From Henningerozyma blattae CBS 6284 (Eukaryota > Ascomycota > Saccharomycetes > Saccharomycetales > Saccharomycetaceae): a DNA stretch of 64,000 nucleotides. The notes below the pieces were generated by a model. That model was not told the DNA's origin, made no database searches, and saw only the letters and a program-made list of their open reading frames with translations. Location: positions 1,715,679 through 1,779,678 of the forward strand of contig NC_020187.1 in NCBI RefSeq assembly GCF_000315915.1, written 5' to 3'. Both the position numbers and the translations under genes were made by a program. Shown one piece after another: positions 39,616 to 64,000 of the stretch (the first letter of the stretch is position 1; the number at the start of each line of letters is the position of its first letter).

Positions 39616-41796
39616 ATGTCGTCAACGGATTCCATCAAAGAAACTTGGCAATTAAACACATACCAAGATGACTGTGGTACAGATTCTACTTCAAGTCCGG
39701 TAATTTTTGCTTTCAATGATTTTGTTCCAAGCTCATCAAATAGTTTATCTAATTTGAGCTGTCGATTTAATACAGCCCTTAATAGATACTCAAGAATTCG
39801 CACAATTAAAAATGTTTCAGTTAAAATCATCCGTTCTAAAATATTCATATTGTTTATTATAATAAATATTATTCTAGGCTTGGTCTGTCCATTTCAAATC
39901 AATGGTAAACAAATAGCAACTAATCCAAAGCAATTTTATAAAGCATGGACTTCGACTAAGGAAGTTACAGCCAAGAAAGACTTAATGAGTATAGATATGG
40001 CGCCTGTTTTGAAGTTCCAAAATAATGAAAAGAGTGCAATAAATTCAAGGGTAATTAATGACGACTATAAAGAATTTAAAATTAAGGGTTATGTTTCAAA
40101 TTTAAATATTAAAAGCTTAATTGATAGAAAAAGGTCTAAACTTAAAAAAGAAGATTATTCTAAAGATTCTAAAAATAGTGAGAAGCTGTTATCCATTGCT
40201 GGATTTGAAGTAATGCTGAATAATGATTATAGTGCTTTGGCTACATGTGAAGATTTGGAATATTCTTCTAAAATTTTATATTCTAAAAAGAGTAAATTAT
40301 TGGAAGATGATTTAATTAAAATAAGAAAAGAACTAATTGCAAATGATCCATTTATTGGTCCATTGGTTCATGATGAGACAGAAAATGATTGGACTGATAA
40401 GGAAATTATGGAGAAAAGATGGTTTAGATTTGGTGCATCTAGTATTTGGTTAGAAAGTGAACAATGCTATATTACTGTGAGTCGAATTGTCTTTTCTAGA
40501 GCTGAAGAAAAATCAAATCCTGATGTTTCATTAATTAGAGCTCAAGCATTTGACAAGGATTGGAACGAAATTCAAGGTAAACGTATTCCAAAGGTAGATC
40601 TACCTACTCTAAAAGATGTTGAAAATGAATTGAATCTAATAGATAAAGAATTTGGTTTAAATAATGAGTGTGACAAATTATCCAAAGATTCGGTCGCTTA
40701 TGATAATTGTATGGTGAGTCATGCACAAACCTTTTTAGAAGATCAAAAAAGAAGGGATGCATTTATTAATCGATATTTTGTCACATACCCAACAGTGTAT
40801 AGTTTCCCCTTTAAAACAAATGGTAAACTGCAAGGTCCAGAAGATGCTAGAATTATTTTAAGAAAAACTGACACTTTAGAAGAACCTATGGTTTTCTTTA
40901 ATATGGATACTGATCATGGTAGGAAATTTTTTACTTATATGCCTCATAGATTCATTAATCCTTTAATTGAATTTGATATTAAAGTTCATGGCACACACGA
41001 TGTTGAAAAAAATTGGGCTCCATTTTTCCATGAAGATGATACGAAGACTATTTCATTATTATCTCGTGGCTTCATTCATTTCGTGTATAGTTTTTCTCCA
41101 TTTGAAGTCATTAAATGTTCATTAAATGATGGTATGTGTGAAAAAGTCTTTGAAAAAAAAACTTTGGCGTTATCAAATAAAAATAATTTTGGTGGTATGC
41201 GTGGGGGTACACAAATTGTTCAATTGCCAAGCATTATTCCAAAAGTTACTGGTAAACAAATGTGGTTAGGGATAGCCAAATCACATATTGAAAACTGTGG
41301 TTGTGGTAGGCATTTCTACAGGCCTATGCTAAGTCTTTTTGTGGAAAGCAATGGTATTTACCACCAAGAGCTTATAGTACCAAGTATGGATCTTAATAGT
41401 GAGATTTTAAATTGGAAAGAGGATGGTAAAGCATGTGATTACAAGAATGTAATGTCGCCAAACTCCATCGCTGCTTGGGAAGTCCTAGGTCAAGATCCGA
41501 AAACTAAAAAATTTGATGATTACTTGGTCTTCACTTACAGTGAATCCGATATTTTGTCTAAGGTCATTACTATCCGAGGTATACTAGATTACATTCTAAG
41601 AGTTTATGGTGAAAAAGACCTATTAGAAGATTTCATTCCATCCACAGATGCAGATTCTATCCTAGGTACAACCTTGGACTGTATGATCAATTACGCCAAT
41701 GATCAATGTAAGAATTATGGCGCGTCTCGTAAGACCTCCTACTGGGACGAAGAAAAGGCAAAATGGATTCACGATGGTGAATCGCCGAACACTTGA
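39616..41796 (+). CDS. GT91/BMT-family beta-mannosyltransferase, copy A
   Basis: 726 residues. Type II topology: about 74 cytoplasmic residues, one membrane span at about 75-92 (KIFILFIIINIILGLVCPF), then a luminal catalytic region. Family blocks: CEDLEYSSKILYS, RWFRFGASSIWLESEQCYITV, SLIRAQAFDKDWNEI, YFVTYPTVYSFPF, GPEDARIIL (most copies have GPEDPR), KNWAPFFHEDD, CGCGRHFYRPML, MSPNSIAAWEVLGQDP and FTYSESDILSKV. The C-terminal Cys pair is in LDCMINYANDQCKNYG. The family (former DUF3589) includes Candida albicans and Komagataella BMT proteins, which add beta-1,2-mannose to mannans or phosphopeptidomannan in the Golgi. S. cerevisiae lacks it. Substrate unknown here. Nearest relative in the window is copy B. 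Confidence 0.88.
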   Translation: MSSTDSIKETWQLNTYQDDCGTDSTSSPVIFAFNDFVPSSSNSLSNLSCRFNTALNRYSRIRTIKNVSVKIIRSKIFILFIIINIILGLVCPFQINGKQIATNPKQFYKAWTSTKEVTAKKDLMSIDMAPVLKFQNNEKSAINSRVINDDYKEFKIKGYVSNLNIKSLIDRKRSKLKKEDYSKDSKNSEKLLSIAGFEVMLNNDYSALATCEDLEYSSKILYSKKSKLLEDDLIKIRKELIANDPFIGPLVHDETENDWTDKEIMEKRWFRFGASSIWLESEQCYITVSRIVFSRAEEKSNPDVSLIRAQAFDKDWNEIQGKRIPKVDLPTLKDVENELNLIDKEFGLNNECDKLSKDSVAYDNCMVSHAQTFLEDQKRRDAFINRYFVTYPTVYSFPFKTNGKLQGPEDARIILRKTDTLEEPMVFFNMDTDHGRKFFTYMPHRFINPLIEFDIKVHGTHDVEKNWAPFFHEDDTKTISLLSRGFIHFVYSFSPFEVIKCSLNDGMCEKVFEKKTLALSNKNNFGGMRGGTQIVQLPSIIPKVTGKQMWLGIAKSHIENCGCGRHFYRPMLSLFVESNGIYHQELIVPSMDLNSEILNWKEDGKACDYKNVMSPNSIAAWEVLGQDPKTKKFDDYLVFTYSESDILSKVITIRGILDYILRVYGEKDLLEDFIPSTDADSILGTTLDCMINYANDQCKNYGASRKTSYWDEEKAKWIHDGESPNT

Positions 41797-43868: not shown

Positions 43869-46003
43869 ATGTCAAAGAATCTCTCCAATAAAGAAAGTGT
43901 AGAGCTTCATGAATTTACATTAGAAGATGGAAATCCCCACTCATTACCAAGCTCGGACCCCCATATTATTATGGATGATGAGTTTCTATTTGAAACACCA
44001 AACAAGTCCTTATCCCATCAATCACCCACTAATACATGTGCTAGAATTAGTCATGCTTTAAGAAGAATGGCAAATGTAAAAAATCCTTTGATGAAAAAAT
44101 TCTTACATTTTAAAGGTCCAATAGCCATACTATTATTATTTTCGGTTATTTTAGGTATTTCAGTGCATCCTCATAAATCAATTCCAACTGCTAAAAACTA
44201 TATCTTACAAACTTTTAAATCTGTTAAAGAAGTTTCTTCAAAAAGAGAATTGGCCGCACTCGATCTAACTTCATCTATAAAATATAATAATAATTTGGAA
44301 AAAAGTGCAATTAATTCTAGGATTATAAACCAACATTATGATGATTTTAAAATTAAAGGTTATATTTCAAATTTAAATATAGATAAGTTACTTAATGAAA
44401 AGCAATCAAAAGTTGAGAAAGCTGGTTCAACTTTGAAAGATTCTAATGGTGAGTTAGTAGCTGTTAAGGATTTCGAATTAATGTTAAATAATGATTATAG
44501 CTCATTGGCATCTTGTGAAGATTTGGAATATTCATCAAAGATATCTTATTCAACAGAAAGAAAAATAATTGAAGATGACTTATTAGCTTTACGCAGAGAA
44601 TTAATTAATAGGAATGATTTGATCTCAAAATTCATGACAAATGAAGATGAGAAAGATTTAAGTGATGAAGAGATTGTTAAGAAACGGTGGTTTAGATTTG
44701 GTTCTTCTAGCGTTTGGTTGGAATCTCAGCAATGCTATATTACTGTCACCAGATTAATGTACGCTAAATCTGGTGACAGAAATAAACCAGATATATCACT
44801 AATTAGAGCGCAAGCTTTTGATAAAGACTGGAATGAAATAAAAGGGAAAAGAATTCCAAAAATTGATATTTCTTTACCAAAGAGCATTGAAGAAGAATTG
44901 CAAAGAATTGATAAAGAATTTGGTAATGTTGATGCTTGTGAAGAGTTGAGTTCAGATGCAGTTGCATATGATCAATGTACTATCCAGCATGCCAATGCTT
45001 ATTTAGATGGTCAAGCTAGAAAGGAGGAATTTTTGAAGCAATATTTTGTTACATATCCAACTGTATATGAGATTCCATTTTACACAGAAATTAGATATAA
45101 AGGCCCTGAAGATCCAAGAATTATTTTAAGAAAAGATGATGATTTGGAAGAACCTGTTATTGTTTTCAATATGGAAAATGAAAGAGGCCGCAGATTTTAT
45201 TCTTATTTACCACATAGAAATATTAAACCATTAGTTGAATTTGATATCAAAGGTCATCGTGCACGTAAGAAGGAAAAAAATTGGGCTCCATTTTTCCATG
45301 AAGATGATACGAAGACTATTTCATTATTATCTCGTGGCTTCATTCATTTCGTGTATAGTTTTTCTCCCTTTGAAGTCATTAAATGTTCATTAAATGATGG
45401 TATGTGTGAAAAAGTTTTTCAAAAGGAGAGCTTAAAATTGTCTAATAAAAATAATTATGGTGGTATGCGTGGGGGTACACAAATTGTTCAATTGCCAAGC
45501 ATTATTCCAAAAGTTACTGGTAAACAAATGTGGTTGGGTATAGCCAAGTCGCACATTGAATATTGTGGCTGTGGTAGACATTTTTATAGACCTATGTTAA
45601 GTCTTTTTGTGGAAAGTAACGGTGTTTACCATCAAGAGCTTGTTGTTCCATATTTAGATTTTAATACAGAGGTAATTGGATGGAATAATCAAGAAAATAA
45701 GTGTGACTATATCAATATTATGTCACCAAACTCAATATCTGCATGGGAAGTGTTAGGCCAAGATCCTTTGACAAAAAAATTCGATGATTACTTGGTAATT
45801 ACTTATAGTGAATCCGATATTCTATCTAAAGTCATTACTGTCCGAGGTATGCTAGATTACATCCTGAGATTATATGGTGAGAAAGACATAGAGGAAATTT
45901 TGTTCCTTCATTGGATTCTGACAACATTTTAGCAACCACTCTTCAATGTACAATTGATGAAATAAAAAATCAATGTAACATTTATGGAAAAAAGCATTCG
46001 TGA
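43869..46003 (+). CDS. GT91/BMT-family beta-mannosyltransferase, copy B, frameshifted near the C-terminus
   Basis: The ORF as read ends at 45932 (687 residues). Cytoplasmic tail about 82 residues, membrane span about 83-99 (GPIAILLLFSVILGISV). All family blocks are present: CEDLEYSSKISYS, RWFRFGSSSVWLESQQCYITV, GPEDPRIIL, KNWAPFFHEDD, CGCGRHFYRPML, MSPNSISAWEVLGQDP and TYSESDILSKV. After EKDIEE (45891-45896) the frame is lost. A neighbouring frame continues FVPSLDSDNILATTLQC then EIKNQCNIYGKKHS to a stop at 46001-46003, restoring the C-terminal Cys pair seen in all sister copies. One missing base at about 45894-45900 explains this. As read, the protein ends in 11 unrelated residues after the EE and lacks the Cys pair. 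Two blocks are nearly identical to copy A. Confidence 0.85.
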
Positions 46004-46244
46004 GTGTTATGTAGACATTAAATAGAATAGACACATGCATTTAAATGTGTACGTTAATACTAATAAAGTAATTATAGAGATAAATATTGTCATTAATTAT
46101 GTAAAGTATTCTGTGTAACTTATTTATACATATATAAAAAAAATGGCGAGACATTACAATTTTATATTGAAACCCATGTAATGTTGTCTTTGAAATTAAA
46201 TAGTTTTTGTAATGTTTATTAATTTTAAATTAATAATTATTTGG
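46004..46244. terminator. Convergent 3' region of GT91 copies B and C
   Basis: A 240-bp AT-rich interval between two converging genes. It must contain both 3' ends; TATATA and A-rich positioning stretches near 46120-46145 fit yeast polyadenylation signals, but no single site can be fixed. Confidence 0.4.
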
Positions 46245-48323
46245 TTATAGGTTGTGAATTTCTGCGTATTTTGCGCAGTCATCTCTAAGCTGATTAATAG
46301 CGCAAGACACAGTCTTTTTCATCATGTTCCGTGTGAAAGGTGAAGGAGTATATTTCTCAGAAACGTCTTTTTTATGATACATTTGAAGGATGTGATTTAC
46401 CAATCCTCTAATAATGACTACCTTGGATACTTCGTCTGCCTCACTATAAGTCAACACCAAATAATCTTCTATTTTATTTGATTTATGATCATGCTCAACT
46501 ATATCCCAAGCTGCAATTGAATTTGGAGTCATTACGTTATTCCAATCGCATCGAGCATCACCATGATCCCAACTCTGCACATTAACATTAAAATTAATAT
46601 TTGGTGCAATAAATTCCTGATGGAAAAGTCCATTATGCTCAATCATTAACATCATTAAGGGCCTATAAAAATGTGAGCCACAACCACAACCTGAAGAATG
46701 AGTTTTTGGAAAACCTAGCCATATTTGTGTGTCTCGAACCTGAGGGATAGGTTCTGGTAATGGTACAAATTGAGAGGCCCCACGTATTGCATGGAAACTT
46801 TTGAATTTTTCAGAATTTACTCCTGTTATCATGTCACAATACCCATCATCTAAGGAACATTTAAGTATTTGGAAAGGGCTAAAACTATAAACAAAGTGAA
46901 TAAATCCTCTTAATAAAATCGATGCAGGTATATCATCTTCAGTAAAGAATGGGGTCCAATTTTTCTCCTTCTTTAAAACCTTAAAATTAGAAACTTTCAA
47001 TTTTTGTAATTGTTCAATAGCTCTGTGTGGCAAAAATGTGTGAATACCACGCCCTTCTTCATTCCCCATGTTAAAGATAATAACAGGCTCTTCATTGTTA
47101 TGAATTTTTCGTAATATAATTCTTGGATCTTCTGGACCTCTAAATTTACCATCGGTATCAAACGGAATTTTATAAATTGTGGGGTATGTCACGAAGTATT
47201 TATCTAATAGCAGATTTTTCCTTTCTTGGGCTTCGAGTCGCTGGTTATTCTGCTTTGAAATACATTTTTCATAAACGTTTGGGTCAGATACAATAGACTC
47301 ACAACCATTCGAAAGCCCATATTCGTCATCAATTTTTTTTAATTCTTTTTCAATATTGGCTGGTGCAACCACATCAATTTTCGCTATGCGTTTGCCAGTA
47401 AGTTCATTCCAATTTCTATCAAACGTTTGGGCACGTAGGAAAGAAATTTTAGGCTGAGATTTATCTTCTTTAGGGGTATAAAGTATTCTTGATATTGTTA
47501 AGTAGCATTGTTCACTTTCTAGCCATACACTAGAAGCTCCAAATTGGAACCATCTTTTTTTAATGATTTCATCTAACTCTTTATCCTTCTCATCAGTAGC
47601 AACAATTGCCCTTGAGAATTCGTCATTAGCGTCTAATAATTGTTTACGGATGGAAATTATATCGTCACTAATGATCGTTCGATCTGACGAATAAGATATC
47701 TTCGATGAATATTTTAAAGAATCACAATCTAATTTCTTTTCAATATCTTTTTTTTCTCCTTCAGCTAAATTTTGAAACTTTTTTGAATGATTGTCAATTA
47801 AAAAGTCTGGATCTAAATTTGTCAAATAACTATTAAAAGAATATTCCTCAAATTTACGATTTCTCATAATATTATTGATCGGTCTATTCTTAAAAGATTT
47901 TACCTTCAAAATTGATGAAAAATCTGAACTTAATAAATCTTTTTTTGATGTTACTGGTTTTAATCTGTTATTTGAAGAAAAAAAATAGGTAGTGTTTTTG
48001 ATTGAAGACCCTGAAAGTATATGAAAACTTGATAGTATGACAATTAATGATAGAAGTATTACCATTCTAAGTTTAAGTTTAGAATTCATTAAAAAACGGA
48101 AATTACATCTAGATCGTAATATATGGGCAACATATCGTGAGCTTGATTTAAGATTTTGCAATTTCAGCTGAAAAATATTAGAGCATATCCCCTGATCAAC
48201 TCCTGTGCCATTTGCTTCTAGTGAATTATCAATGGATTTATTTTCACCTGTACATGTTGTTTGCATAAGTGTATCTAATGAAATATTTTCTCTATCATCA
48301 CCTTGTTCTTGGATTAGACTCAT
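46245..48323 (-). CDS. GT91/BMT-family beta-mannosyltransferase, copy C
   Basis: 692 residues. Cytoplasmic tail about 85, membrane span about 86-104 (MVILLSLIVILSSFHILSG), followed by a shortened stem: the segment between SNLNI and CEDLEYS in A and B is largely missing. Catalytic region: CDSLKYSSKISYS, RWFQFGASSVWLESEQCYLTI, FLRAQTFDRNWNELTGKRI, GPEDPRIIL, KNWTPFFTEDD, CGCGSHFYRPLM, MTPNSIAAWDI and LTYSEADEVSKV. It departs from the others at the GGxRGGTQ block, which reads IRGASQFVPL. C-terminal Cys pair present (VSCAINQLRDDCAKY). Convergent with copy B and clearly more diverged than A and B are from each other. Confidence 0.87.
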   Translation of the reverse strand: MSLIQEQGDDRENISLDTLMQTTCTGENKSIDNSLEANGTGVDQGICSNIFQLKLQNLKSSSRYVAHILRSRCNFRFLMNSKLKLRMVILLSLIVILSSFHILSGSSIKNTTYFFSSNNRLKPVTSKKDLLSSDFSSILKVKSFKNRPINNIMRNRKFEEYSFNSYLTNLDPDFLIDNHSKKFQNLAEGEKKDIEKKLDCDSLKYSSKISYSSDRTIISDDIISIRKQLLDANDEFSRAIVATDEKDKELDEIIKKRWFQFGASSVWLESEQCYLTISRILYTPKEDKSQPKISFLRAQTFDRNWNELTGKRIAKIDVVAPANIEKELKKIDDEYGLSNGCESIVSDPNVYEKCISKQNNQRLEAQERKNLLLDKYFVTYPTIYKIPFDTDGKFRGPEDPRIILRKIHNNEEPVIIFNMGNEEGRGIHTFLPHRAIEQLQKLKVSNFKVLKKEKNWTPFFTEDDIPASILLRGFIHFVYSFSPFQILKCSLDDGYCDMITGVNSEKFKSFHAIRGASQFVPLPEPIPQVRDTQIWLGFPKTHSSGCGCGSHFYRPLMMLMIEHNGLFHQEFIAPNINFNVNVQSWDHGDARCDWNNVMTPNSIAAWDIVEHDHKSNKIEDYLVLTYSEADEVSKVVIIRGLVNHILQMYHKKDVSEKYTPSPFTRNMMKKTVSCAINQLRDDCAKYAEIHNL

Positions 48324-49729: not shown

Positions 49730-50644
49730 TTAATATGATAACAGAGATTCTAAATTATACTCTATAAATTCTTTAAAATCATCAGTGTCTTTTATATCAT
49801 ATAAATACTTCAAAATATATGCAGGTTTCATTGCAACATAATATTGATTGGCCCATTTCTTAAAAGGTTGGACATTTTCATTTTTTGATTTTTCGGTTAG
49901 ATAGGCAGCTTCATAAGCATTTTGAATTGTAGAGTTTTGCTTCTTGAATGGACCAGATAATTCCATTATATGGCTTACTGCAAGAAATTTTGGAAGTTTT
50001 TTCCGTGAATTTGTTGGATTCTTGGTTGACTTTTTAGATGAAGTAGCCGAGCTTTTTTTATTTGATTCCTTTTCTAGATTTTTCTTTTCTGCTTTCTTTT
50101 CTGCTTCCTGTTCTGAGTTAATATTATTTGTATACAAAGTTACAAATTTCATTACTTGGATGGGTATTCTTCCACCAGGGCGTTTAAGCCCGTCAATAAA
50201 TTTTAATTTCCAGGTGTTGATGCTACCTTTGAAGGTGTTAAGGTGAGATTCTTCACAGAAATGTTTAATATCATCAATTGAGTTACAATATTCTTTTATT
50301 TGAGCAAAATTATCCAGAACTGTCGCAATATCTCTGAGTACCTTGTATTTATTTGCTGAGGATGAGGCTTCTTCAACTTTTTCTAAAAAATCACTAGTAG
50401 TCTTATCATTTATCATATCTTCTAATTTTTCATCTAATGACTTTGGTGCAGTAACAAATTCACGAGGCAAAGCTGGTTTATCCAAATACACTCTGAACTT
50501 ATATTTATTAAATTCGAAGTCAAAACTTGTTTGATCCATATAAAGTGTATCTTTAGTGGTTTTTTGTAGGGATTTGGAACTTATTCCTTCATCACTTGTT
50601 GGTGCAATTTTGTCTCTGATAGAACTTGAAAATGGAGTTTCCAT
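49730..50644 (-). CDS. Unrecognised 304-residue protein within the GT91 cluster
   Basis: I do not recognise a family. No signal peptide or membrane span is visible, so it is probably cytosolic or nuclear. Residues 1-37 are Ser/Thr-rich and polar. A folded-looking part follows (FDFEFNKYKFRVYLDKPALPREFV at about 41-64, then helices to about 172, including LNTFKGSINTWKLKFIDGLKRPGGRIPIQVMKFVTL). A Lys/Ser-rich basic linker (about 182-216) leads to a second ordered region (FLAVSHIMELSGPF ... QPFKKWANQYYVAMKPAYILKYLYDI). Codon use and composition look like a real gene, and the ATG at 50642-50644 begins the only long frame. The two-domain architecture with a basic hinge could suit a nucleic-acid-associated protein, but that is speculation. 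Confidence 0.7.
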   Translation of the reverse strand: METPFSSSIRDKIAPTSDEGISSKSLQKTTKDTLYMDQTSFDFEFNKYKFRVYLDKPALPREFVTAPKSLDEKLEDMINDKTTSDFLEKVEEASSSANKYKVLRDIATVLDNFAQIKEYCNSIDDIKHFCEESHLNTFKGSINTWKLKFIDGLKRPGGRIPIQVMKFVTLYTNNINSEQEAEKKAEKKNLEKESNKKSSATSSKKSTKNPTNSRKKLPKFLAVSHIMELSGPFKKQNSTIQNAYEAAYLTEKSKNENVQPFKKWANQYYVAMKPAYILKYLYDIKDTDDFKEFIEYNLESLLSY

Positions 50645-51366: not shown

Positions 51367-53628
51367 TCATCCGTCCCTTTTTTCTATATCTTCTTCCTTA
51401 TTTTTTATTTCATAACTCAACCTTTGTTTTGTTCTAGGTTTGTTGCTTCTTTTCCTCCTTCTTTTCTTCCTTCTTTTCTTCCTTCTTTTCTTCTTTCTTT
51501 TCTTCTTTCTTTTCTTCCTTCCTGTCCTCCTTTTTATCTTCCTTCTTTTCCTCCTTCTTATCTTCCTTTTTGTTAGAATCCTTTTATTTTTTCGATCTTT
51601 TATCTTTTGGATCTCTTCAGCGGGATCAATATCTAACCCAGGATGCTTATTTCCATAGATTCTACACTCAGATAATGAGTGAGAAACTATACATTTCGTT
51701 GCTTCATAATCTAAATCTCTTGAAAAGAAATAATTCTCATTTATTTTGTTTCCTGAATACATATGTAGTACATAATTCAATACTCCTTTAAGAGTTATAA
51801 TTCTTGAAACTCGGCCTCCCTCTGTATACATAAAAGCCATGTAATCTTCAATTATTTTGGTTTTAGGATCCTGACCTAATATATCCCATGAAGCAATTGA
51901 ATTAGGTATCATCATATTATAACCTGTACAATTTGTACTTTTTCCATCCCAACCCAAAACATCAGTATCAAAGCTAACATTAGGCGCAAACATTTCAAAA
52001 GTAAAATTTCCTGAACTCTCCGCCATGACTGTTAACATTGGACGATAATATCTCTTGCCACAACCACAATCATCTAGCCTAATTTTGGTAAATGCGACCC
52101 ATAATTGTTTGTCTTTAATCTTTGGCATTTCATTAGGTAGCGGAACAAATGGAGTGCCTTCACGAATTACATCTGTAAAAACTCCATCTTCAACTTTAAT
52201 GGGCGGTTTCTCGAAAACAATCTCACACTTCCCATCTGTTAATGAACATTTTAAGACCTGAAAAGGGTTATATTTACGAATAAAGTGAATATACCCAAGT
52301 GATATTGAAGAGTCAACGCTCGAATCGTTTTCTGTAAAAAACGGTGTCCAATTAGTCTCAGGTTTCCTATTTGATTCTTTTAAATAAAATGGAATCAAAT
52401 TATTTATTGATCTATGAGGTAAAAAGGCATACATCCTCCTATCATCATTATTATGCATATCAAATACAATTACTGGTTCCTCTAGCTTCTGTGACTTTTT
52501 GAGTATGATCTGTGGATTAGTAGGCCCTCTCAATCTGCCATTTGTGTTAAATGGAAATCTGTAAACAGTTGGATAAGTAACAGAATACCGGTCAAGTAAT
52601 TTTTGTTTTCTTTTCTTGGCTTTCATATTTGAATCTTTATATTTGGATAAGCAGTCTTCATATGCATCAAAATCCTCATTATATTTATCGCAATTATCTT
52701 TCACTTTTAAATCTCGTTCAATCTTCGATAACTCTTCTTTAAGATTATTTGGTTCGTTAACGTCTAATTTTAAAATTCGTTTACCTTTAATTTCGTTCCA
52801 ATCTTTGTCATAAGCTTGTGCTCTTATTACAGAAACGTCGGGTTCAAATAGTTCTTCTTCTGACGAGTAGCGAACACTTGTTAAGACAATATAGCATTGT
52901 TCACTCTCTAGCCAGACACTTGAAGTACCCATTTTTTGCCACCTCTTACGAACAATTTCATTTTCACCCATTCTCTCATCCTGTTTTACTACTCTGTCAG
53001 ATAGAAAATCTTTAAAAGCAACAATCTGTCTTCTTATATTAAACAAACTGTCATCGATAAATGGTCTGTTTCTTGAATATTCTATATCTTCTGTGTATGC
53101 CAATTGATTACACCCTACTGTACCAATATTTGTATTTAGATTCCTTGGATTGATGTCAGGTAATATTGAGTTAATTTGATTTTCTTCCTTTTTGGTATTC
53201 TGATGGGAGAAAGGATTATAATTGGAAATATACCCTGGTATCCTTATACGACTATAGTTGTCGAAAGTTATCTTTTTGGATATTGGAGAACTATCCTGAA
53301 ATGAATGCCTTAACTTATGTCTGATATCAACCATATCAAGATCCTTTTTATTTAAAACCAAATCATCGTCATTGGTAGTCTGAAATTGGAAAGTTAAGAG
53401 ACGTTGATTATTACTCGCTCTTAATATAATAAGTATTATAAATAAGAGTAATATTCCCTTAAAAATATTAAGTTTTAAATATTTTTTCAATACATTTGTC
53501 TGTTTTGAACTCGGAGTTTTGGTACTTTTATTATTTATGTACTTCCGGTATTTCGAGACTCGTTTTAATCTTTTAAAAATAGAGTTACCTTCCATAGTAT
53601 ATTCAGATGTTGATGTGTTCTGACTCAA
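51367..53628 (-). CDS. GT91/BMT-family protein, copy D, diverged and with an out-of-frame basic tail
   Basis: 753 residues. Basic cytoplasmic tail about 54, membrane span about 55-69 (IFKGILLLFIILIIL). Family blocks remain: RWQKMGTSSVWLESEQCYIVL, VIRAQAYDKDWNEIKGKRI, TYPTVYRFPF, TNWTPFFTEND, CGCGKRYYRPML and NSIASWDILGQDP. Two normally invariant motifs are changed: GPEDPR is GPTNPQ, and the late TYSEAD is MYTEGGRVS. The C-terminal Cys pair is kept (CIVSHSLSECRIYG). After GLDIDPAEEIQKIKDRKNK the read-through frame is an Arg/Lys-only tail of about 60 residues. A neighbouring frame gives an orderly Lys-Lys-Glu-Glu repeat ending at a stop at 51434-51436. Activity is doubtful; fold membership is secure. 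Confidence 0.83.
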   Translation of the reverse strand: MSQNTSTSEYTMEGNSIFKRLKRVSKYRKYINNKSTKTPSSKQTNVLKKYLKLNIFKGILLLFIILIILRASNNQRLLTFQFQTTNDDDLVLNKKDLDMVDIRHKLRHSFQDSSPISKKITFDNYSRIRIPGYISNYNPFSHQNTKKEENQINSILPDINPRNLNTNIGTVGCNQLAYTEDIEYSRNRPFIDDSLFNIRRQIVAFKDFLSDRVVKQDERMGENEIVRKRWQKMGTSSVWLESEQCYIVLTSVRYSSEEELFEPDVSVIRAQAYDKDWNEIKGKRILKLDVNEPNNLKEELSKIERDLKVKDNCDKYNEDFDAYEDCLSKYKDSNMKAKKRKQKLLDRYSVTYPTVYRFPFNTNGRLRGPTNPQIILKKSQKLEEPVIVFDMHNNDDRRMYAFLPHRSINNLIPFYLKESNRKPETNWTPFFTENDSSVDSSISLGYIHFIRKYNPFQVLKCSLTDGKCEIVFEKPPIKVEDGVFTDVIREGTPFVPLPNEMPKIKDKQLWVAFTKIRLDDCGCGKRYYRPMLTVMAESSGNFTFEMFAPNVSFDTDVLGWDGKSTNCTGYNMMIPNSIASWDILGQDPKTKIIEDYMAFMYTEGGRVSRIITLKGVLNYVLHMYSGNKINENYFFSRDLDYEATKCIVSHSLSECRIYGNKHPGLDIDPAEEIQKIKDRKNKRILTKRKIRRRKRRKIKRRTGRKKRKKKRKKKRRKKRRKKRRRKRSNKPRTKQRLSYEIKNKEEDIEKRDG
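51434..51585 (-). repeat. 12-bp tandem repeat in the 3' end of GT91 copy D (AAGAAGGAAGAA type)
   Basis: About eleven imperfect 12-bp units on the minus strand. Read from AAGGATTCTAAC they give KDSN then repeated KKED/KKEE and finally KKQQT before TAG at 51434-51436. Unit differences are mostly third-position A/G changes in Lys codons and A/G/T/C changes in Glu/Asp codons of that frame. Confidence 0.8.
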
Positions 53629-54680
53629 TATTACTAAAGTTCTAATAAAAGGCTGTCTGATAAAAAATACCAGGCAAAATATTTATATTTTGTTTAACTT
53701 ATAATAGAAGTAGAAGCAGAAGCAAGTTATTAATTTGAGCTAAACTTAAGACTCATATTAATAGATAATAGTTATTAAATATTGCTTATTTAATAAGAGA
53801 AATAATTTGAATTATTTATTAGAGTAGCAATATTTATATATATTTATTTATTTATATTTTTTTTAGCATGTTATAAGAAGATTATACCCCAAGAAAGAAT
53901 ATGCATCCTAAGAAACTGATTTTTTAAAATTTTGTTTACATTAATGGTTATGTATTTTCCAGATAATAATATATTTGAGATTTGATTCGTTTTAACTTTA
54001 TTTCTGGCCAGTAAAAGGAAATACGTGTCAAATCGTGTTTTCATTTTCAGAAATTCCTTCCCGGAGTCGCGAAGGAAATTTACCAAATCATGGAAATGAT
54101 GATATATAATCCTGTACAAAATAGTCACTGTTTCCTGAAACCAACTTACTCTATCGGTTAAAACTAGATATTATCGGAACATCATATTTCTAAATTTTTG
54201 TTTTATGAAATATCTTCATATATTGCTTGTCACCTTAGATCAAAGGTAAATAATGTAACAAGCGCCTTTTATTTGAAACCAAAATTATGAGACTATTTGG
54301 AGCTATTTTAAATATAGATTAAGTGGGTCCTAATTTTAGATATATCATGTGCCAATGTTTTGTTAATCTATACCTTTTAGTTTGAGCTTCTAGATTAAAT
54401 GCTAGTAGGCCTAAATCTACAACCGGTAATATTCCCTATTTGGTAGTCCTTTCTTGTGTCACAAATTTTAACGTACTTGTCACCTAAAAAAGTGAATTTT
54501 TTATTAATTAAACATTATTAAAAGTAAAAAGAAAAAAAAGTAAAATAGTCTTTATAAAAAATGCCAGTATATAATTTTAGGAATATTAATATTGAATGGA
54601 TGAAGAAGAAACTAAATGTAAGTTTCGTGTTTTTTTATCATAAAAGCTTGAAAAATATTGTCGGGGTATAGTTTTCCTTT
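53629..54680. other. Intergenic region between GT91 copies D and E
   Basis: 1.05 kb, AT-rich. The minus-strand ORF at 53871-54128 has no support. No other feature is seen. Confidence 0.5.
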
Positions 54681-57014
54681 TTATTTGCCTAAATATTGTT
54701 TATGCTTTTCACCATAAGCTTTACAGATATTCTTTGCTTCTTCATGTAGACATTCAAAAGAATTCATAAAGATAAAATCAGTGTCATCGGATTGGATGAA
54801 ATCTTCCTCGATATCTTTTTGAGAATATATGTTTAAAATATAATCCAAGATTCCTCTTACGGTAATTACTTTAGAGACTGCATCTGCTTCACTGTAGGAG
54901 AATATTAAAAAATCATCGAATTTTCTAGTTTTTGGATCTTGGCCAACTACATCCCAAGCAGCAATTGAATTGGGGGACATTACATTGTACTCTTTGCATT
55001 CAGTTGAAACCCTATCCCAACTCAATACATCAGTCTGGAAGTCCATCGATGGGACGATTAAATCTTGATTATAAACACCATCTTTTTCTACTAATAATGT
55101 TAGCATTGGTCTATAAAATCTTTCTCCGCAACCACATTTATCTAAATGTAATTTTGTAAATCCAATCCACATCTGTTTCCCAAAAATTTTTGGAATGATA
55201 TCAGGTAAAGGAACCATTTGAGTTCCACCGCGTACAATACCAAAATTATGGCCTGCAGGATCATTTAAGAATTCAGATTTGTATACCATATCGCAAACAC
55301 CATCTAATAATGAACATTGTACCACCTCAAATGGAGCAAATCTTCTAATGAAATGAATAGTTCCCGGTGAAACGTCAGAAACTGTTTCAATATCTTCTTC
55401 TGTGAAAAATGGAGTCCAATTCTTTTGAACGGAATTTTTATCTTCTCTTAAATAAAAATGTACAAAATTATCAAAAGCTCTATGAGGTAAGAAACCATAC
55501 ATTCTTCTTCCATCACCGTTATCCATATTAAATACAACTACTGGTTCTTGTTTATCTCCATTTTTTCTAAGAATTATTCTTGGATCTTCAGGCCCTCTTA
55601 AATAGCCACGAGGATTGAATGGAAATTGGTAAACAGTTGGATAAGTAATATAATAAGAATCAGTTATTTTATTTTTACGATCATTAATATTATCTGTGAT
55701 TTCTTTATTTTTAGCAATACAACTTTTATATTGATTTGAATCATTTTCAAAAAGAGATTCACAGCTTATTAATTGATCAAATTCTTTATCAATATTGGCT
55801 AATTGAATTTCAATATCGTCAGGTAATTCAACGTCTATTTTTCTAATTTTTTTCCCTTTAATTTCATGCCAATATTTATCAAAAGCTTGAGCTCTTATCA
55901 TAGATACATCAGGAGCAGATTTCAATCCTCTTGAAGAATACATTACTCTTGTTACTGTAATATAGCATTGTTCAGTCTCTAGCCAAATGGTTGCAGAACC
56001 GAATTTACCCCAATGAGTTCTTACTACTTCATCTACAGATTTATCTTTTTCATTATCATGGAAAGTCCATTTGGAAAGAGGATCATCTCTTCCCAATACT
56101 TGTTCTCTAATATCAAATAAGCTATCTTGAATTAAAATTCTTTCTTTAGAATATGAGATTTCATTTTCATATCTTAAAGTATCACAATCAATTAATTTTG
56201 AATCATTTAATATTGAAGCTAAACTTGTTGAATATTTCCCATTTAGAAAAAAATTGTTATAAAATAACGTGTCTAATCTTCCATAATCGTTTTTATTATT
56301 AATATTTTCATTTTCATCAATTATTGAATTTTGCTTAATACCATGATGATTTTGATTTTTTGAATCAATTGGTGCTGGTAACTTAATATTTGAAACATAA
56401 CCATTTACATCCATCTTGAGATATTGTTCTTTTCTAATTTTATTTGAAATTGGAGAATTTTTAAAGTCTTTAAATTTTAAAAAGGGATTAATATCTACAT
56501 TTAAAAGATCTCTTTTACTATAGACATTATTACCTTTTAACCAATTTGAAATGTAAGTGTTATAAATATAGAAATTTGTATTTTTATCATTTATTGATTT
56601 CAAATTTTTAAAATTCAAATTATAAATATTCATATTATTGAAATTTAAATTTTTGCCATCATTTGAAGAAAAAGCAAAACCTAAAATAAAATTCAATAGA
56701 GTTAAAAAAATTGATATTGATATGAATTTTAATTTATTATTTTTAAATTTAATTATAAAGAATTTATAAAAATTAAAGATGAGTTCAATTGGTTTAATTA
56801 AAATTCTTAAAAAAATTTTTTTAACTTCAAATATTGAGATATTGTCATTGATAGTATTATTTTCTATAAGTGAATCATCTATACTAGATTCGTCGAATAC
56901 TAAATCTTCCTTAGATTTATCATTAATAAAATGATTTGAAGCCATTTTTTTATTTAAAAAAAGCGGTTTGGGGTGGTGGTGGTGGTGGTGGTTGTGGTAG
57001 TGGCGATTTGACAA
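54681..57014 (-). CDS. GT91/BMT-family beta-mannosyltransferase, copy E
   Basis: 777 residues, the longest copy. The N-terminus begins MSNRHYHN then six or more His in a row, followed by a cytoplasmic region to about 96 and a membrane span about 97-116 (FISISIFLTLLNFILGFAF). An earlier hydrophobic stretch (about 66-90) may lie along the membrane. The stem is Asn-rich. Conserved blocks are intact: CDTLRYENEISYS, WGKFGSATIWLETEQCYITV, SMIRAQAFDKYWHEIKGK, YPTVYQFPF, GPEDPRIIL, KNWTPFFTEED, RGGTQMVPLP, CGCGERFYRPML, MSPNSIAAWDVVGQDP and FSYSEADAVSKV. Cys pair in FECLHEEAKNICKAYG. All key motifs are kept, so it is likely active. ATG at 56945 (residue 24, after the His tract) is an alternative start. 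Confidence 0.88.
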   Translation of the reverse strand: MSNRHYHNHHHHHHPKPLFLNKKMASNHFINDKSKEDLVFDESSIDDSLIENNTINDNISIFEVKKIFLRILIKPIELIFNFYKFFIIKFKNNKLKFISISIFLTLLNFILGFAFSSNDGKNLNFNNMNIYNLNFKNLKSINDKNTNFYIYNTYISNWLKGNNVYSKRDLLNVDINPFLKFKDFKNSPISNKIRKEQYLKMDVNGYVSNIKLPAPIDSKNQNHHGIKQNSIIDENENINNKNDYGRLDTLFYNNFFLNGKYSTSLASILNDSKLIDCDTLRYENEISYSKERILIQDSLFDIREQVLGRDDPLSKWTFHDNEKDKSVDEVVRTHWGKFGSATIWLETEQCYITVTRVMYSSRGLKSAPDVSMIRAQAFDKYWHEIKGKKIRKIDVELPDDIEIQLANIDKEFDQLISCESLFENDSNQYKSCIAKNKEITDNINDRKNKITDSYYITYPTVYQFPFNPRGYLRGPEDPRIILRKNGDKQEPVVVFNMDNGDGRRMYGFLPHRAFDNFVHFYLREDKNSVQKNWTPFFTEEDIETVSDVSPGTIHFIRRFAPFEVVQCSLLDGVCDMVYKSEFLNDPAGHNFGIVRGGTQMVPLPDIIPKIFGKQMWIGFTKLHLDKCGCGERFYRPMLTLLVEKDGVYNQDLIVPSMDFQTDVLSWDRVSTECKEYNVMSPNSIAAWDVVGQDPKTRKFDDFLIFSYSEADAVSKVITVRGILDYILNIYSQKDIEEDFIQSDDTDFIFMNSFECLHEEAKNICKAYGEKHKQYLGK

Positions 57015-58463
57015 GTTTAATGATGAATTATAGAATTAAGATTATTTTTTTTTATATATGTTTAAGATCATCAAGAATCTTCTGTATTTTCTTTTTTAAT
57101 TTCAAGGTTTCAAGTAACCAAGATTCCTTCAGGAACAATCAATAAAGAGGAACAAGGTTAACCGTTTTAATGAAAACAATAAAAAGAGATCATGTTTCAG
57201 TTCTTGGTAATAGCAAACGGTAATTAAGAATAAAATATACACTAATGAAGTATCACGGAGAGGGGACCACAAAGAAGGCATTGCCAAGAAAGTATCATTA
57301 ATAAAACATAACGGAGTATCCAATAAGCTTCATTTGTTTCTAAAGTTAATTTAACTTTACGGTAACTTAATTTACAATTATCTTAATATTTTTTAAATTA
57401 TTTGGTGTGATTCAAGCCAAGACATACTCCGCAATAAGGTAAACTAATTTTATTCTAAATATAAAAGGAAAAGAATGCTAATGACATATATTTACAATTG
57501 AAATACCGAGTTCAGTGCCACGTATTAAATTACTTTAAGTAAACATGCCAAGTCTAAGCAATTACAGTATTTATTTATTATACATCTTGAATCATGCACA
57601 AAAAAACAGTCGACACAGTTTAGTCTGTCCATCTCTGACATATATATCAACATTATCATGAGGAGAGATTTTTTTCTTGGTGTCAATCAAATTTTATTGG
57701 ACGTCTAATATTGCCCACACCATAAATCATCTCTGATCCAACGAATAAAATGAAACAATTTGAAATCGTGCCTCCAACTCCGAAACTCTCATTATGTATT
57801 GCCTAATGCCTTAATAAATAAACAAAACAAGTATTCAATTACACACTTGTGTAAGTGTCATTTGAGTCGTTAATTAGGATAATGATGTCAATTTCTCTAA
57901 GCTCAAGAAAGAGTATATACCGTTCAAGTAATTGCCATCATACACTTTAATTTAATTACAATAAACCAAATTGCAATGATGAAATCATTAATGACAGCAA
58001 AACTATTTATATATTAAATATGGATTCCTTATAATATTTACTGGAAATAAAAAAGTACCTAGCTCTGTGACACGTAATAACAAGTGATTTAGGAAACGGA
58101 AAATTAAAAAAAGCGAGCCAAGCCAGATCCAAAGCAATAACATAAACACACCCCCTACGCAATCTCTCTAGCCTTGTCTCTACGCAACATCCTGTAGCAG
58201 ATCTCTAAGTAGTAACTCCGATGACTCGTCCGAGGCTATCTCCGTCTAGTCGGGACCCTGCAGCCAGAAAAAGAAGTGTGATAGGTATTTCCGCCATCCC
58301 TTTGCCTCTGCACACCTGTCTCTGCGATCGGAACATCTTGGACCGCCTGCGGACGTATGTTTGGCACGGCAGGCCTGCACACAACGATGCCTGGAATAAC
58401 TGTCCCACGAAGTCATTACCAGATCCGGTTATGCGCCGGACCGACTCCAAAGCCGAATCTTAA

Positions 58464-58570
58464 TCTGTATCCGTCTTCGTATCCGTATCCGCTTCCGCTT
58501 CCGTATCCGAATCCGAACCCGAACTCGCGTCCGAGCCGAATCCCGAATCCGAATCCGGCTCCGAGACGGC
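58464..58570. repeat. Degenerate 6-bp tandem array (TCCGNN)
   Basis: About seventeen hexamer units such as TCCGTA, TCCGCT, TCCGAA, with small phase slips near 58530-58545. One plus frame reads Tyr/Leu/Asn-Pro repeats (YPYPLPLPYPNPNPNS). A minus frame reads Ser/Asp/Thr/Glu repeats (SDSDTEAEADTDT). Neither is part of a recognisable gene. Confidence 0.8.
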
Positions 58571-59071
58571 ATTTTCTTAGATTCCCAGATGGCCCGCCCG
58601 ATCCATAGTTTTCGGTGGACTCCTTACCGATCCTCCTACAACTCTCCTGCCAACAATGTCTCTACAGGAGCATCGTAGAACAATTCCTGCGCAAGTGTCT
58701 GGGCACTTCTCTCCGGCAGAACGCCTGAAACGGCTTTGCCCCCAGAAGGATACCTACTAGTTTTATTTTTCCTCCATACACGAGGATTGTCCTGGAAAAT
58801 CTAAAGCAGTAATAAATGAAACGGTTAGACTAGCAGTTTTGGGCAGCCACTTCAAGCAGTGCTAAATAGGTAATTACATCGGTATTGTAGCTGTTTCTGG
58901 TATTTTTCATCCCACGGTTTAATTTCCCCAGAAACAGGCGTGTCCATGCAAAGCCTACTGTTATTGAAATTTGATATTAATGAGATACGGCTCATCGTAG
59001 TAGCCTTCCATTCTTGGTTTCAATAGCTGAGATGGCAAATGGACAAAAATAAAAAAAAAGAAAAAAAAAAA

Positions 59072-59143
59072 GGAAGAAAAGGAAGAAAAGGAAGAAAAGG
59101 AAGAAATGGAAGAAAAGGAAGAAAAGGAAGAAAAGGAAGAAAA
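59072..59143 (+). repeat. 9-bp minisatellite GGAAGAAAA, eight units
   Basis: Eight consecutive 9-bp units, seven perfect and the fourth GGAAGAAAT, preceded by an A-rich run from 59049. In one frame it reads Lys-Glu-Glu repeats, reminiscent of the Lys/Glu tails of GT91 copies D and F. Confidence 0.9.
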
Positions 59144-60057
59144 CATTCAAGATGGCAATCATAAAGGCGTTGATAATATAGCCTATAGTAGAGGAAAATT
59201 AGCTTAGAAGCTGTGCTTTATTTGAATTTATATATTGTCTGATTTGGTCTCATCAGAGAATCCTGTGCCGACATTCTAGCCTGTTTTCCATTGTCTTTAC
59301 TTTTTTTGAGTTTTTTTTTCATGGTAATGTCAAAATACCGTTTTATAGTATTTAACATATTGTTGATTATGTATATAACACTAATCCTTCTCGTGTTTCA
59401 CCTTTGCGCCTGTGTGTCTGCCTACTAATCCTTTTTCTTGAATCATCTTGTAGGTGTGTGTGTATCTGATCATCGTTTTTTTTTCACCTTTTATTTTTTG
59501 GTCTTCTCTCAAAGTTTGTTTTGGCCCCATTTGTTTATTCCCTTAATTATCCTTCATAATTGTTGGCTTTCCGTTGGTACAAGGTAGATATAGCTACGTA
59601 TACATATATAATCTATTGGTTACGATAATCAATATTCAAAATTACCATTGACACCTATCATAGTGTTTTTTTTGGAAGGTTTCACGTTCTGTGCTTTGGA
59701 CCTTACAGTTTATCAACGGGTTTTAGAACTACATTTTCTGCTCTACTAGTCGTTTGCCGCTCCTAAGGCTTTCTACTTTCAACGCTATAACTTCTAGTTT
59801 TGTTTTATCTTTACAAGCTCAATTAGCTTAATTAGCTTAATTTTACTAGCTCAATTCAATATTGCTTTTTATTTTTCTCATCCGTTAGCTCTGATTGTTC
59901 TTTCATTAACAATCCTTAAAATTCGTCATTAATTTCTATTTTGCTCTTTTGGTCTTTTTTTTCTACTATTATTATTCTGTTTATTTATTTGGTTTATTTG
60001 TTTTTTGTTCCATATTGCTCTTATAAAATAAAATAAATTCCAAAAGTAAAAATCATA

Positions 60058-62085
60058 ATGTCTTCCTTATCTTTCCAATTATCAAAATTACGTTCTTTAA
60101 GAAGATTACTCCACTACAGGTTAAAATCAGTGATCTTAGCAATAAGTGTCATATTTATCATTTCAATAATATTAATAACTTCCAATGGTAATTATAATAA
60201 TAATAATAACACAATTATAACCAACTCGTGGTATCCTTCTTCAAATACATTTGGATTTTATAATACTAAAAATTTTGTGGATACAAAAAAAGATCTATCA
60301 CATCTAGATCTTTCCAATGTTTTATCTAAAACTCTGGTTAATAAATTTCCAATCCCTAATGATGAAACTTTTTCCAAATTTGATGATTTTAAATTCACTG
60401 GTTATATTACAAATTTAAATATTCAAAATTTAATTGAATCGAAAAAGGATGAATTAGATAAGCATGAATTAAAATCAAAAGATGGTTCTCCGATAACTGT
60501 TAAAGAATTCGAATTAATGTTAACAAATAATTATGATTCTTTGGTTGGTTGTGAAGATTTAGCTTATTCTTCTAAAATTCATTATTCCGTGGAGAGAAAA
60601 ATCATTTCTGATGATTTATTATCCTTAAGAAAAGAAATTATTAGAGCTGAAGATGAAATTGCTAAACATATGGTTCATGATAATGAAAAGGGTAAAGATG
60701 ATGCAGAAATTGTGAAATCAAATTGGTTTAGATTTGGTTCTTCTAGTGTTTGGTTAGAAAAGGAACAATGTTATATCACAGTAACAAGATTAATGTATTC
60801 TTCTAGGGGTAGAAAACAAGGTCCAGATGTTTCCATTGTTAGAGCTCAAGCTTTTGATAGAAATTGGAATGAATTATTTAATAAACGTATACCAAAATTA
60901 GACTTGAAAATTCCTGAAAATTTGGAAGAAGAATTGAAAAAGATAGATATAGAATATGGGTTATCCTCTGATGTTTGTAAAGCTTTCGATGAAACTTCTT
61001 CCGAATATGATAGTTGTATTATAAATCAAAAAAAGAATTATTTAAAAAATGAAAAAAGAAGAAATCAATTATTAAATAAATATTTCATTACTTATCCAAC
61101 GATTTATAAATTCCCAATTAAATTCGGAGGTAGATTTTCTGGCCCTGAAGATCCGAGAATTATTATGAAAACTACTGAAAATCATGTAGCTGATGAACCA
61201 GTGGTTGTCTTTAATATGCAAGATAGTGGTAGTAGAAGGATGTATGGGTTCTTCCCACACCGTACAGTAGATTCATTAATTAAATTTGAAATTCATAATG
61301 ATGGGATGAGAAATCAAGAAAAAAATTGGGCTCCAATTTTTACTGATAATGATTCCTCAACAGAATTTTCTCGTGGTTCAATTCATTTTATTTATAATTT
61401 CATGCCATTAGAAATTTTAAAGTGTTCTTTGAATGATGGTAGTTGTGAAAAAGTCTTTTCTAAAAAAACATTGGGTCTCTCTGATAAAACAAATTTCGGT
61501 GGTGTTCGTGGTGGTACTCAATTTGTTCCTTTGCCTTCAGTTATACCAAGAATTCCAGGTAAACAACTTTGGTTAGGTTTTTCAAAATTACATATTGATA
61601 AATGTGGTTGTGGTGAAAAATTCTATAGGCCTATGTTGAATATTTTGGTGGAAGAAAAAGGTATATATCATCAAGAATTGATTGTACCTTCTATGGACTT
61701 TAATACAGAAGTTTTAGATTGGGATACTACATCATATTCTTGTAAATACTATAATGTCATGTCTCCAAACTCAATCGCTTTCTGGGATGTGATCTCACAA
61801 GATCCGAACAACAAAAAGTTCGATGATTTATTAGTGTTTACATATAGTGAGGCTGATGAAATTTCAAAAGTCATGGCTATTAAAGGCCTACTAGATTATG
61901 TTTTGAACTTATATTCTGCTAAAGACCTTGAAGAAGAATTTATTCCTTCTAGAGATGTAGAAGCTATTTTAGCAACAACATTGGGCTGTGTTAAACAATA
62001 TGCCGAAAATGTTTGTAAAGAATATGGTGCTTTACATCCCGTTGAAGAGGAGGAAAAGGAAAAGGAAAAGGACAAAAAACAGTAA
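60058..62085 (+). CDS. GT91/BMT-family beta-mannosyltransferase, copy F
   Basis: 675 residues, with the shortest cytoplasmic tail: about 23 residues rich in Arg/Leu (LRSLRRLLHYRLK) before the membrane span at about 24-42 (VILAISVIFIISIILI). This is the classic layout of a Golgi type II glycosyltransferase. All motifs are intact: CEDLAYSSKIHYS, NWFRFGSSSVWLEKEQCYITV, SIVRAQAFDRNWNEL, YPTIYKFPI, GPEDPRIIM, KNWAPIFTDND, VRGGTQFVPLP, CGCGEKFYRPML, MSPNSIAFWDVISQDP and FTYSEADEISKV. The C-terminal Cys pair is in LGCVKQYAENVCKEYG, followed by a Glu/Lys tail (VEEEEKEKEKDKKQ). It is plus strand, separated from copy E by 3 kb. Probably active. Confidence 0.89.
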   Translation: MSSLSFQLSKLRSLRRLLHYRLKSVILAISVIFIISIILITSNGNYNNNNNTIITNSWYPSSNTFGFYNTKNFVDTKKDLSHLDLSNVLSKTLVNKFPIPNDETFSKFDDFKFTGYITNLNIQNLIESKKDELDKHELKSKDGSPITVKEFELMLTNNYDSLVGCEDLAYSSKIHYSVERKIISDDLLSLRKEIIRAEDEIAKHMVHDNEKGKDDAEIVKSNWFRFGSSSVWLEKEQCYITVTRLMYSSRGRKQGPDVSIVRAQAFDRNWNELFNKRIPKLDLKIPENLEEELKKIDIEYGLSSDVCKAFDETSSEYDSCIINQKKNYLKNEKRRNQLLNKYFITYPTIYKFPIKFGGRFSGPEDPRIIMKTTENHVADEPVVVFNMQDSGSRRMYGFFPHRTVDSLIKFEIHNDGMRNQEKNWAPIFTDNDSSTEFSRGSIHFIYNFMPLEILKCSLNDGSCEKVFSKKTLGLSDKTNFGGVRGGTQFVPLPSVIPRIPGKQLWLGFSKLHIDKCGCGEKFYRPMLNILVEEKGIYHQELIVPSMDFNTEVLDWDTTSYSCKYYNVMSPNSIAFWDVISQDPNNKKFDDLLVFTYSEADEISKVMAIKGLLDYVLNLYSAKDLEEEFIPSRDVEAILATTLGCVKQYAENVCKEYGALHPVEEEEKEKEKDKKQ

Positions 62086-63055: not shown

Positions 63056-64000
<945 letters not shown>

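What the first reader, a model, noticed from the sequence alone, without database searches (positions are those of the whole stretch)
39616..62085. Six-gene cluster of GT91/BMT-type beta-mannosyltransferases
Six full-size paralogues (A 39616+, B 43869+, C 46245-, D 51367-, E 54681-, F 60058+) share one luminal domain with GPEDPR, KNWxPFF, CGCGxxFYRPM, NSIAxW and TYSEAD blocks and a conserved Cys set. They differ in tail length (about 23 to 96 residues) and stem. The family makes beta-1,2-mannose in Candida and Komagataella and is absent from S. cerevisiae. A local expansion suggests an elaborate beta-mannan on the wall or lipids of this yeast, with possible stepwise initiation and elongation roles per copy.
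Basis: partly seen in the sequence, partly recalled or inferred. Interest (0 to 1): 0.85.

Follow-up and report, generated by a model that had tools for sequence, protein, structure and literature searches.

The report
Yeast beta-mannosyltransferase cluster with dead member
Near a contig end of the yeast Henningerozyma blattae sit six relatives of the Golgi enzymes that add beta-mannose to cell surfaces; computer models give them the propeller fold of bacterial and Leishmania beta-mannoside enzymes, and one of the six seems to have lost its catalytic residues while keeping its fold.

Summary
The six paralogues are real and belong to Pfam BMT (PF12141, CAZy GT91). The window is the last 64 kb of a 1.78 Mb contig of Henningerozyma (Tetrapisispora) blattae CBS 6284. 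They are 6 of 18 BMT-type ORFs in the genome, twice the nine reported for Candida albicans. Clusters of this family are known (N. glabratus: five of seven), so the cluster itself is a known kind.

Stepwise roles per copy and an elaborate beta-mannan remain untested.

The parts
39616..41796 (+). A: GT91/BMT paralogue, 726 aa, GPEDAR variant motif, all near-invariant polar residues present
   Evidence: PF12141 E 1.6e-77; residue tables
43869..45932 (+). B: GT91/BMT paralogue, 687 aa, C-terminus cut short by a frame change
   Evidence: PF12141 E 6.1e-84
45893..46003 (+). Stretch in a neighbouring frame that still reads like the conserved C-terminal segment missing from B (described only)
   Evidence: three-frame reading; position computed from it
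40939..41298 (+). Gene-conversion tract in A (codons about 442-561)
   Evidence: third-position identity A-B 75-85%, against 48-58% between A and C2:1118043 over the same codons
45207..45566 (+). Partner conversion tract in B
   Evidence: identical runs of 95 and 78 bases
46245..48323 (-). C: GT91/BMT paralogue, 692 aa, all near-invariant polar residues present
   Evidence: PF12141 E 1.8e-82
49730..50644 (-). 304-aa ORF between C and D, no Pfam family
51367..53595 (-). D: GT91 pseudoenzyme candidate, 742 aa, propeller fold predicted, expected catalytic residues lost
   Evidence: PF12141 E 2.2e-60
52510..52527 (-). D: GPTNPQ in place of GPEDPR (residues 357-362)
   Evidence: position computed from the codon number
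51814..51831 (-). D: MYTEGG in place of TYSEAD (residues 589-594)
   Evidence: position computed from the codon number
51445..51624 (-). D: predicted polybasic helix (residues 658-717, 43 of 60 Lys/Arg), encoded largely by a 12-base tandem repeat (51446-51568)
54681..56945 (-). E: GT91/BMT paralogue, 754 aa, no departure at any near-invariant column
   Evidence: PF12141 E 4.1e-69
60058..62085 (+). F: GT91/BMT paralogue, 675 aa, all near-invariant polar residues present; modelled as a GH130/GT108-like beta-propeller
   Evidence: PF12141 E 1.2e-79
61141..61158 (+). F: GPEDPR motif (residues 362-367), Asp365 the proposed catalytic acid/base
   Evidence: Asp in 147 of 149 family rows; position computed from the codon number
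61855..61857 (+). F: Asp600 of TYSEAD
   Evidence: Asp in 143 of 149 rows; the other six are three gaps, two Gly, one Asn
63056..63976 (-). Old-yellow-enzyme ORF cut short at the contig end; near-copy of one beside another BMT gene on contig C7
   Evidence: PF00724 E 2.8e-78; 97.8% over 938 bases, 63063-64000

Best explanation
A, C, E and F (and B if its lost C-terminus is not needed) are type II Golgi beta-1,2-mannosyltransferases of GT91 that cap or extend mannan side chains. Their luminal domain is a five-bladed beta-propeller of the GH130/GT108 type, and the Asp of GPEDPR (Asp365 in F) acts as acid/base in an inverting transfer of mannose, with Asp600 and Lys422 in the sugar site. D kept the fold, the membrane anchor and the disulphide-type cysteines but lost the catalytic set, so it most likely works without catalysis, as a partner or regulator of its active paralogues; its polybasic helix could hold it to anionic phosphomannan or to partner enzymes. 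Shown by tools: family, copy number, residue losses, predicted fold. Inferred: Golgi site, linkage, donor, catalytic role of each residue, and D's role.
Against: Sequence profiles do not show GH130 kinship: hhalign probability 7.4 with GPEDPR in a gap, 1.6 for the core, and 20 of 100 column permutations reach the real score of 18.7 (mean 16.3). Foldseek's own alignments to GH130 are loose (rmsd 6.5 to 10.5, TM by target 0.41 to 0.53) and sialidases and GH62 enzymes stand among its ranks 11 to 13, before GT108 at 14. The residue equivalences rest on motif order and a non-significant profile alignment, not on a residue-level superposition, which the tools do not print. The polar/other split for D was made after seeing its motifs. 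No expression, glycan or enzyme data. D could still be decaying.
Confidence: 0.66

Rival explanations
1. D is a gene on its way out: catalytic residues went first and the ORF happens to be still open.
For: Subtelomeric setting with turnover; a low-complexity Lys/Arg tail built on a tandem repeat; two other strongly divergent copies, C7:3376 and C7:979774, and one with partial losses, C2:1121182 (3/18 polar, 1/42 other); B shows that copies here take disabling changes.
Against: 742 open codons; loss concentrated in polar sites (8 of 18) with 3 of 42 other sites changed, whereas C7:3376 (6/18, 11/42) and C7:979774 (12/18, 23/42) show no such concentration. D-E dN 0.44 against dS 1.29, identity by codon position 62/72/49%, though this pair value includes E's branch and dS is high. 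The D model is nearly as confident as F's, but both lean on the same alignment.
Confidence: 0.27
2. D is an active enzyme with a changed mechanism or substrate.
For: Fold and cysteines intact in the model and sequence; Arg484 and Arg524 kept.
Against: Arg244, Glu364, Asp365, Lys422 and Asp600 are all replaced. Of the other 148 rows only C7:979774 lacks Asp365. In BT3780, E141Q, D142N, K199A and D363A have no activity (PMC4599007, passages); the pairing with GT91 residues is inferred.
Confidence: 0.12
3. One reading: each copy has its own step (initiation, elongation) in building an elaborate beta-mannan.
For: C. albicans Bmt1 to Bmt4 act in order on N-mannan and phosphomannan, Bmt5 and Bmt6 on lipid (PMC4112839, passages). 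The six are 36-59% identical to each other, so there is room for specialisation.
Against: The expansion is mostly lineage-specific, so no copy can be given a Candida role. A and B exchange sequence by conversion. Subtelomeric amplification can give dosage without specialisation. One of the six is probably dead and one truncated.
Confidence: 0.35
4. The propeller match is only a shared architecture; GT91 has no kinship with GH130/GT108 and GPEDPR is structural.
Confidence: 0.12

Closest known systems
Nakaseomyces glabratus BMT cluster (five of seven BMT genes; PMC11542307, passage)
   Same: Clustered GT91 genes in a yeast of the Saccharomycetaceae (placement recalled)
   Different: 18 ORFs here against 7, at several loci; the window cluster has a member without the catalytic set and a truncated one
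Candida albicans BMT1-9 (PMC4112839, PMC11657238, passages)
   Same: Same family; beta-1,2-mannose on mannan, phosphomannan and phospholipomannan
   Different: Separate expansion as far as tested: the 149-row quick tree holds BMTs named from other Candida species, far from the 18; no row named C. albicans was seen in the listings, so it was not compared directly
GT108 mannosyltransferase/phosphorylases of Leishmania (PDB 6q4x, 6q4z, 6q50)
   Same: Predicted propeller fold; beta-1,2-mannose; eukaryotic
   Different: GT91 has a membrane anchor, a helical insertion (about residues 285-342 in F) and conserved cysteines, and no GT108 chain was hit by sequence
GH130 beta-mannoside phosphorylases and hydrolases (PDB 5b0p, 9fj8, 5a7v)
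   Same: Predicted fold; G-x-E-D and YxGxxD-type blocks in the same order
   Different: The 80 GH130 loci seen are bacterial or archaeal and the role is mostly catabolic (recalled); a three-pattern scan of prokaryote genomes found no GT91

Membership tests
GT91 / BMT (PF12141) | Match to the family profile above its curated cut-off | tested here: met
   All six, 205 to 283 bits against 28.3
GT91 / BMT (PF12141) | Type II membrane topology with luminal domain | tested here: met
   One N-terminal hydrophobic region in each of the six; hydropathy only
GT91 / BMT (PF12141) | Conserved catalytic-type residues (Glu364, Asp365, Lys422, Asp600) | tested here: met
   Met in A, B, C, E and F; not met in D
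GT91 / BMT (PF12141) | Beta-1,2-mannosyl transfer | not testable with these tools
   Needs enzyme assay or mannan NMR
Paralogue D as an active GT91 enzyme | Retains Asp365 and the other key residues | tested here: not met
   R244S, E364T, D365N, K422T, D600G
GH130/GT108 propeller superfamily | Five-bladed beta-propeller fold | tested here: met
   Predicted models only; the same 27 GH130/GT108 entries lead for F and for D
GH130/GT108 propeller superfamily | Detectable sequence homology | tested here: inconclusive
   hhalign not above permuted controls; Pfam scan of the six gives BMT only
GH130/GT108 propeller superfamily | Catalytic Asp in a G-x-E-D block | tested here: inconclusive
   Block and Asp are there: 147 of 149 GT91 rows, 35 of 43 GH130; but they are placed on each other only in a non-significant profile alignment, and catalysis is untested
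GH130 (PF04041) proper | Match to the PF04041 profile | tested here: not met
   No match in the genome

The most novel reading that the evidence does not exclude
GT91 is the fungal Golgi branch of the GH130/GT108 beta-propeller superfamily, so the two enzyme lineages that make beta-1,2-mannan in Leishmania and in yeasts share one fold and one catalytic Asp. H. blattae paralogue D is a maintained GT91 pseudoenzyme that controls or scaffolds its active neighbours through a polybasic tail.
Probability: 0.45. Interest if true: 0.72.

Novelty: new variant of a known kind. Interest (0 to 1): 0.55.

Why it matters
GT91 makes the beta-1,2-mannose of Candida surfaces that takes part in immune recognition, yet sequence searches of the PDB found no solved member, and a 2021 study listed GT91 among families likely to have a novel fold (PMC8476585, passages). 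A GH130-like model turns its mechanism into testable residues. D is a natural experiment: which functions survive when the proposed catalytic set is lost. An 18-member set in a yeast outside the Candida species counted so far also cautions against reading BMT copy number as a virulence marker.

Tried and rejected
Six interchangeable full-size enzymes: rejected, since D lost its expected catalytic set and B its C-terminus.

GT91 in prokaryotes: three peptide patterns from A2 matched 85 stretches in genome contigs and none encoded a relative by tblastn; a distant relative without those patterns would be missed.

A sequence-level link to GH130: the full-profile hhalign hit (probability 7.4, P 0.0048) put a gap across GPEDPR. 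With the helical insertion cut out, the alignment set GPEDPR on GxEDPR and YSEAD on YGAAD, but at probability 1.6; a global run gave nothing useful. Of 100 permutations 20 reached the real score of 18.7, and the reversed profile scored 15.8. I therefore claim fold, not sequence, kinship. The equal 57-residue spacing of D142-K199 in BT3780 and D365-K422 in F was considered, but in the 21 GH130 sequences where a comparable spacing could be read it was 47 in 18, so I do not lean on it.

A matching expansion of the alpha-mannan machinery: GT71 10 ORFs, GT15 11 without stops plus one broken stretch, LicD (Mnn4 type) 2, against 6, 9 and 2 in S. cerevisiae in the table of PMC11657238. Only BMT is greatly expanded.

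Papers. The six papers holding both GT91 and mannosyltransferase were all listed, as were the six of the GH130/GT108/propeller search. The larger lists were capped: 15 of 47, 15 of 75, 20 of 703, 10 of 110. In what was listed I saw no GT91 structure, no propeller assignment for it and no account of the H. blattae BMT set; subscription papers are not covered. Every paper cited was seen by passages only. PMC5446240, PMC3276169 and PMC3724654 (passages) carry no weight here.

YN00 dN/dS failed; NG86 alone was used, with high dS.

Rows left out: P0055, P0059 and P0060 from the tree; P0059 and P0060; D, C7:3376 and C7:979774 when defining near-invariant columns, and two of the 18 (C2:145277, C2:152367) not tabulated; of 80 GH130 loci, 8 without a 250-420 aa ORF and 29 near-duplicates. 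The family searches score only the roughly 8,000 candidates sharing most words, so the 149 rows are a sample. The C7:979774 ORF has no Pfam family by itself; it is counted among the 18 on phmmer E 5e-49 and 25.5 bits, 29.1 with its neighbours.

Full report
What is there. The window is G000:C3:1715679-1779678, the last 64 kb of a 1,779,678-base contig. Named hits on contigs of the same lengths as this genome's carry TBLA tags of Henningerozyma blattae CBS 6284, formerly Tetrapisispora blattae (older name recalled).

The family in this genome. PF12141 finds 35 matched stretches, which fall into 18 ORFs: six here, three and three on C2, one each on C4, C6 and C8, and three on C7. By coordinates and contig lengths, 11 of 18 lie within 25 kb of a contig end. 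Published counts seen as passages: nine in C. albicans, none in S. cerevisiae (PMC11657238), one in P. kudriavzevii (PMC10228781), seven in N. glabratus with five clustered, and six in N. bracarensis CBM3 (PMC11542307). A 63-row tree groups the 18 with two proteins of unnamed source, P0042 and P0047 (support 90/80); these two join E and the C2:1124158 copy (95/92) inside a group that also holds D and C7:3376 (98/98). A quick tree of 149 rows, rooted at its midpoint, gives the same 20 rows. So most of the expansion is lineage-specific, with the D/E group older than the split from those two. Seven rows, C7:979774 first, have long branches and unsure places. Neighbours in the window are not always closest kin: A and B pair, but F pairs with the C4 copy (64% identity).

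Signs of turnover. A and B share a tract (A codons about 442-561) with 75-85% third-position identity, against 48-58% between A and C2:1118043 over the same codons, which points to gene conversion. B's frame changes near its end, and a stretch resembling the conserved C-terminus with two cysteines lies in a neighbouring frame; a sequencing error there is not excluded. The contig ends inside an old-yellow-enzyme ORF whose copy on C7, beside another BMT gene, is 97.8% identical over 938 bases, so the true chromosome end is not seen.

Active site. Across 149 GT91 rows the strongest columns include R244 (146), E364 (146), D365 (147), K422 (145), R484 (144), R524 (146) and D600 (143, with three gaps), in F numbering. 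In order along the chain five of them resemble BT3780 Arg89, Glu141, Asp142, Lys199 and Asp363. Mutants E141Q, D142N, K199A and D363A had no activity; R89A is 0.025 in the table but called 7-fold less active in the text (PMC4599007, passages). The pairing of individual residues is my inference, helped for two of them by a non-significant profile alignment that sets GPEDPR on GxEDPR and YSEAD on YGAAD.

Paralogue D. It has R244S, E364T, D365N, R367Q, K422T and D600G but keeps R484 and R524. Of 60 near-invariant columns, defined on 61 rows without D, it departs at 8 of 18 polar and 3 of 42 other ones (Fisher p 0.0016; the split was chosen after seeing the motifs). A, B, C, E and F depart at 0 of 18 polar columns each. 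Among the other copies tabulated, C2:1121182 departs at 3 of 18 and 1 of 42, C7:3376 at 6 and 11, C7:979774 at 12 and 23. D keeps counterparts of all 11 cysteines of F. Only one other of the 149 rows, C7:979774 of this genome, lacks Asp365, but that one has changed throughout. D ends in a predicted helix with 43 Lys/Arg in 60 residues, encoded largely by a 12-base tandem repeat. An open 742-codon frame with loss concentrated at polar sites suggests a maintained pseudoenzyme. Precedent for a non-catalytic role of a Golgi mannosyltransferase: inactive Mnn9-D236N still enables Van1 (PMC3787745, passages).

How it likely works. Active members add beta-1,2-mannose to mannan side chains in the Golgi, as family members do in C. 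albicans (PMC4112839, passages; Golgi site and GDP-mannose donor by recall). D may bind acceptor or partner without transfer. Copy-specific steps are possible but not shown.

Verdict. The cluster is a new, unusually large example of a known kind; the pseudoenzyme candidate and the fold assignment make it a new variant worth testing.

Noticed in passing
window 63056-64000; L017:8044-9246: Old-yellow-enzyme ORF cut by the contig end, 97.8% identical over 938 bases to one beside a BMT gene on C7: a recent subtelomeric copy or an assembly stop in a repeat.
   Followed up: partly
L018:3775-5946 (C7:979774-981945): Very divergent BMT-like ORF, 723 aa, no Pfam match alone, polar and other near-invariant residues widely changed; a GT71-type ORF lies between it and another BMT gene.
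   Followed up: partly
L016:3376-5295 (C7:3376-5295): BMT copy 3.4 kb from a contig end that keeps Glu-Asp of the motif but lost Lys422, Arg484 and two conserved cysteines.
   Followed up: partly
C2:1121182-1123311 (-): BMT copy (P0030, TBLA_0B04770) that lost Asn423, Arg484 and His512 of the near-invariant set but keeps Asp365 and Asp600: a possible second, milder case.
   Followed up: no
window 49730-50644 (-): 304-aa ORF between C and D without any Pfam family.
   Followed up: no
window 58001-59000: GC-rich kilobase (46.8% against about 30%) with degenerate CCGAAT-type repeats (58441-58565) upstream of F.
   Followed up: no
window 30055-30882 and 32298-33368: Two neighbouring RTA1-like genes; the first contains three N bases (30482-30484).
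   Followed up: no
G000:C1:85786-86196: GT15-type fragment with five stop codons near two intact GT15 ORFs, probably a relic copy.
   Followed up: no
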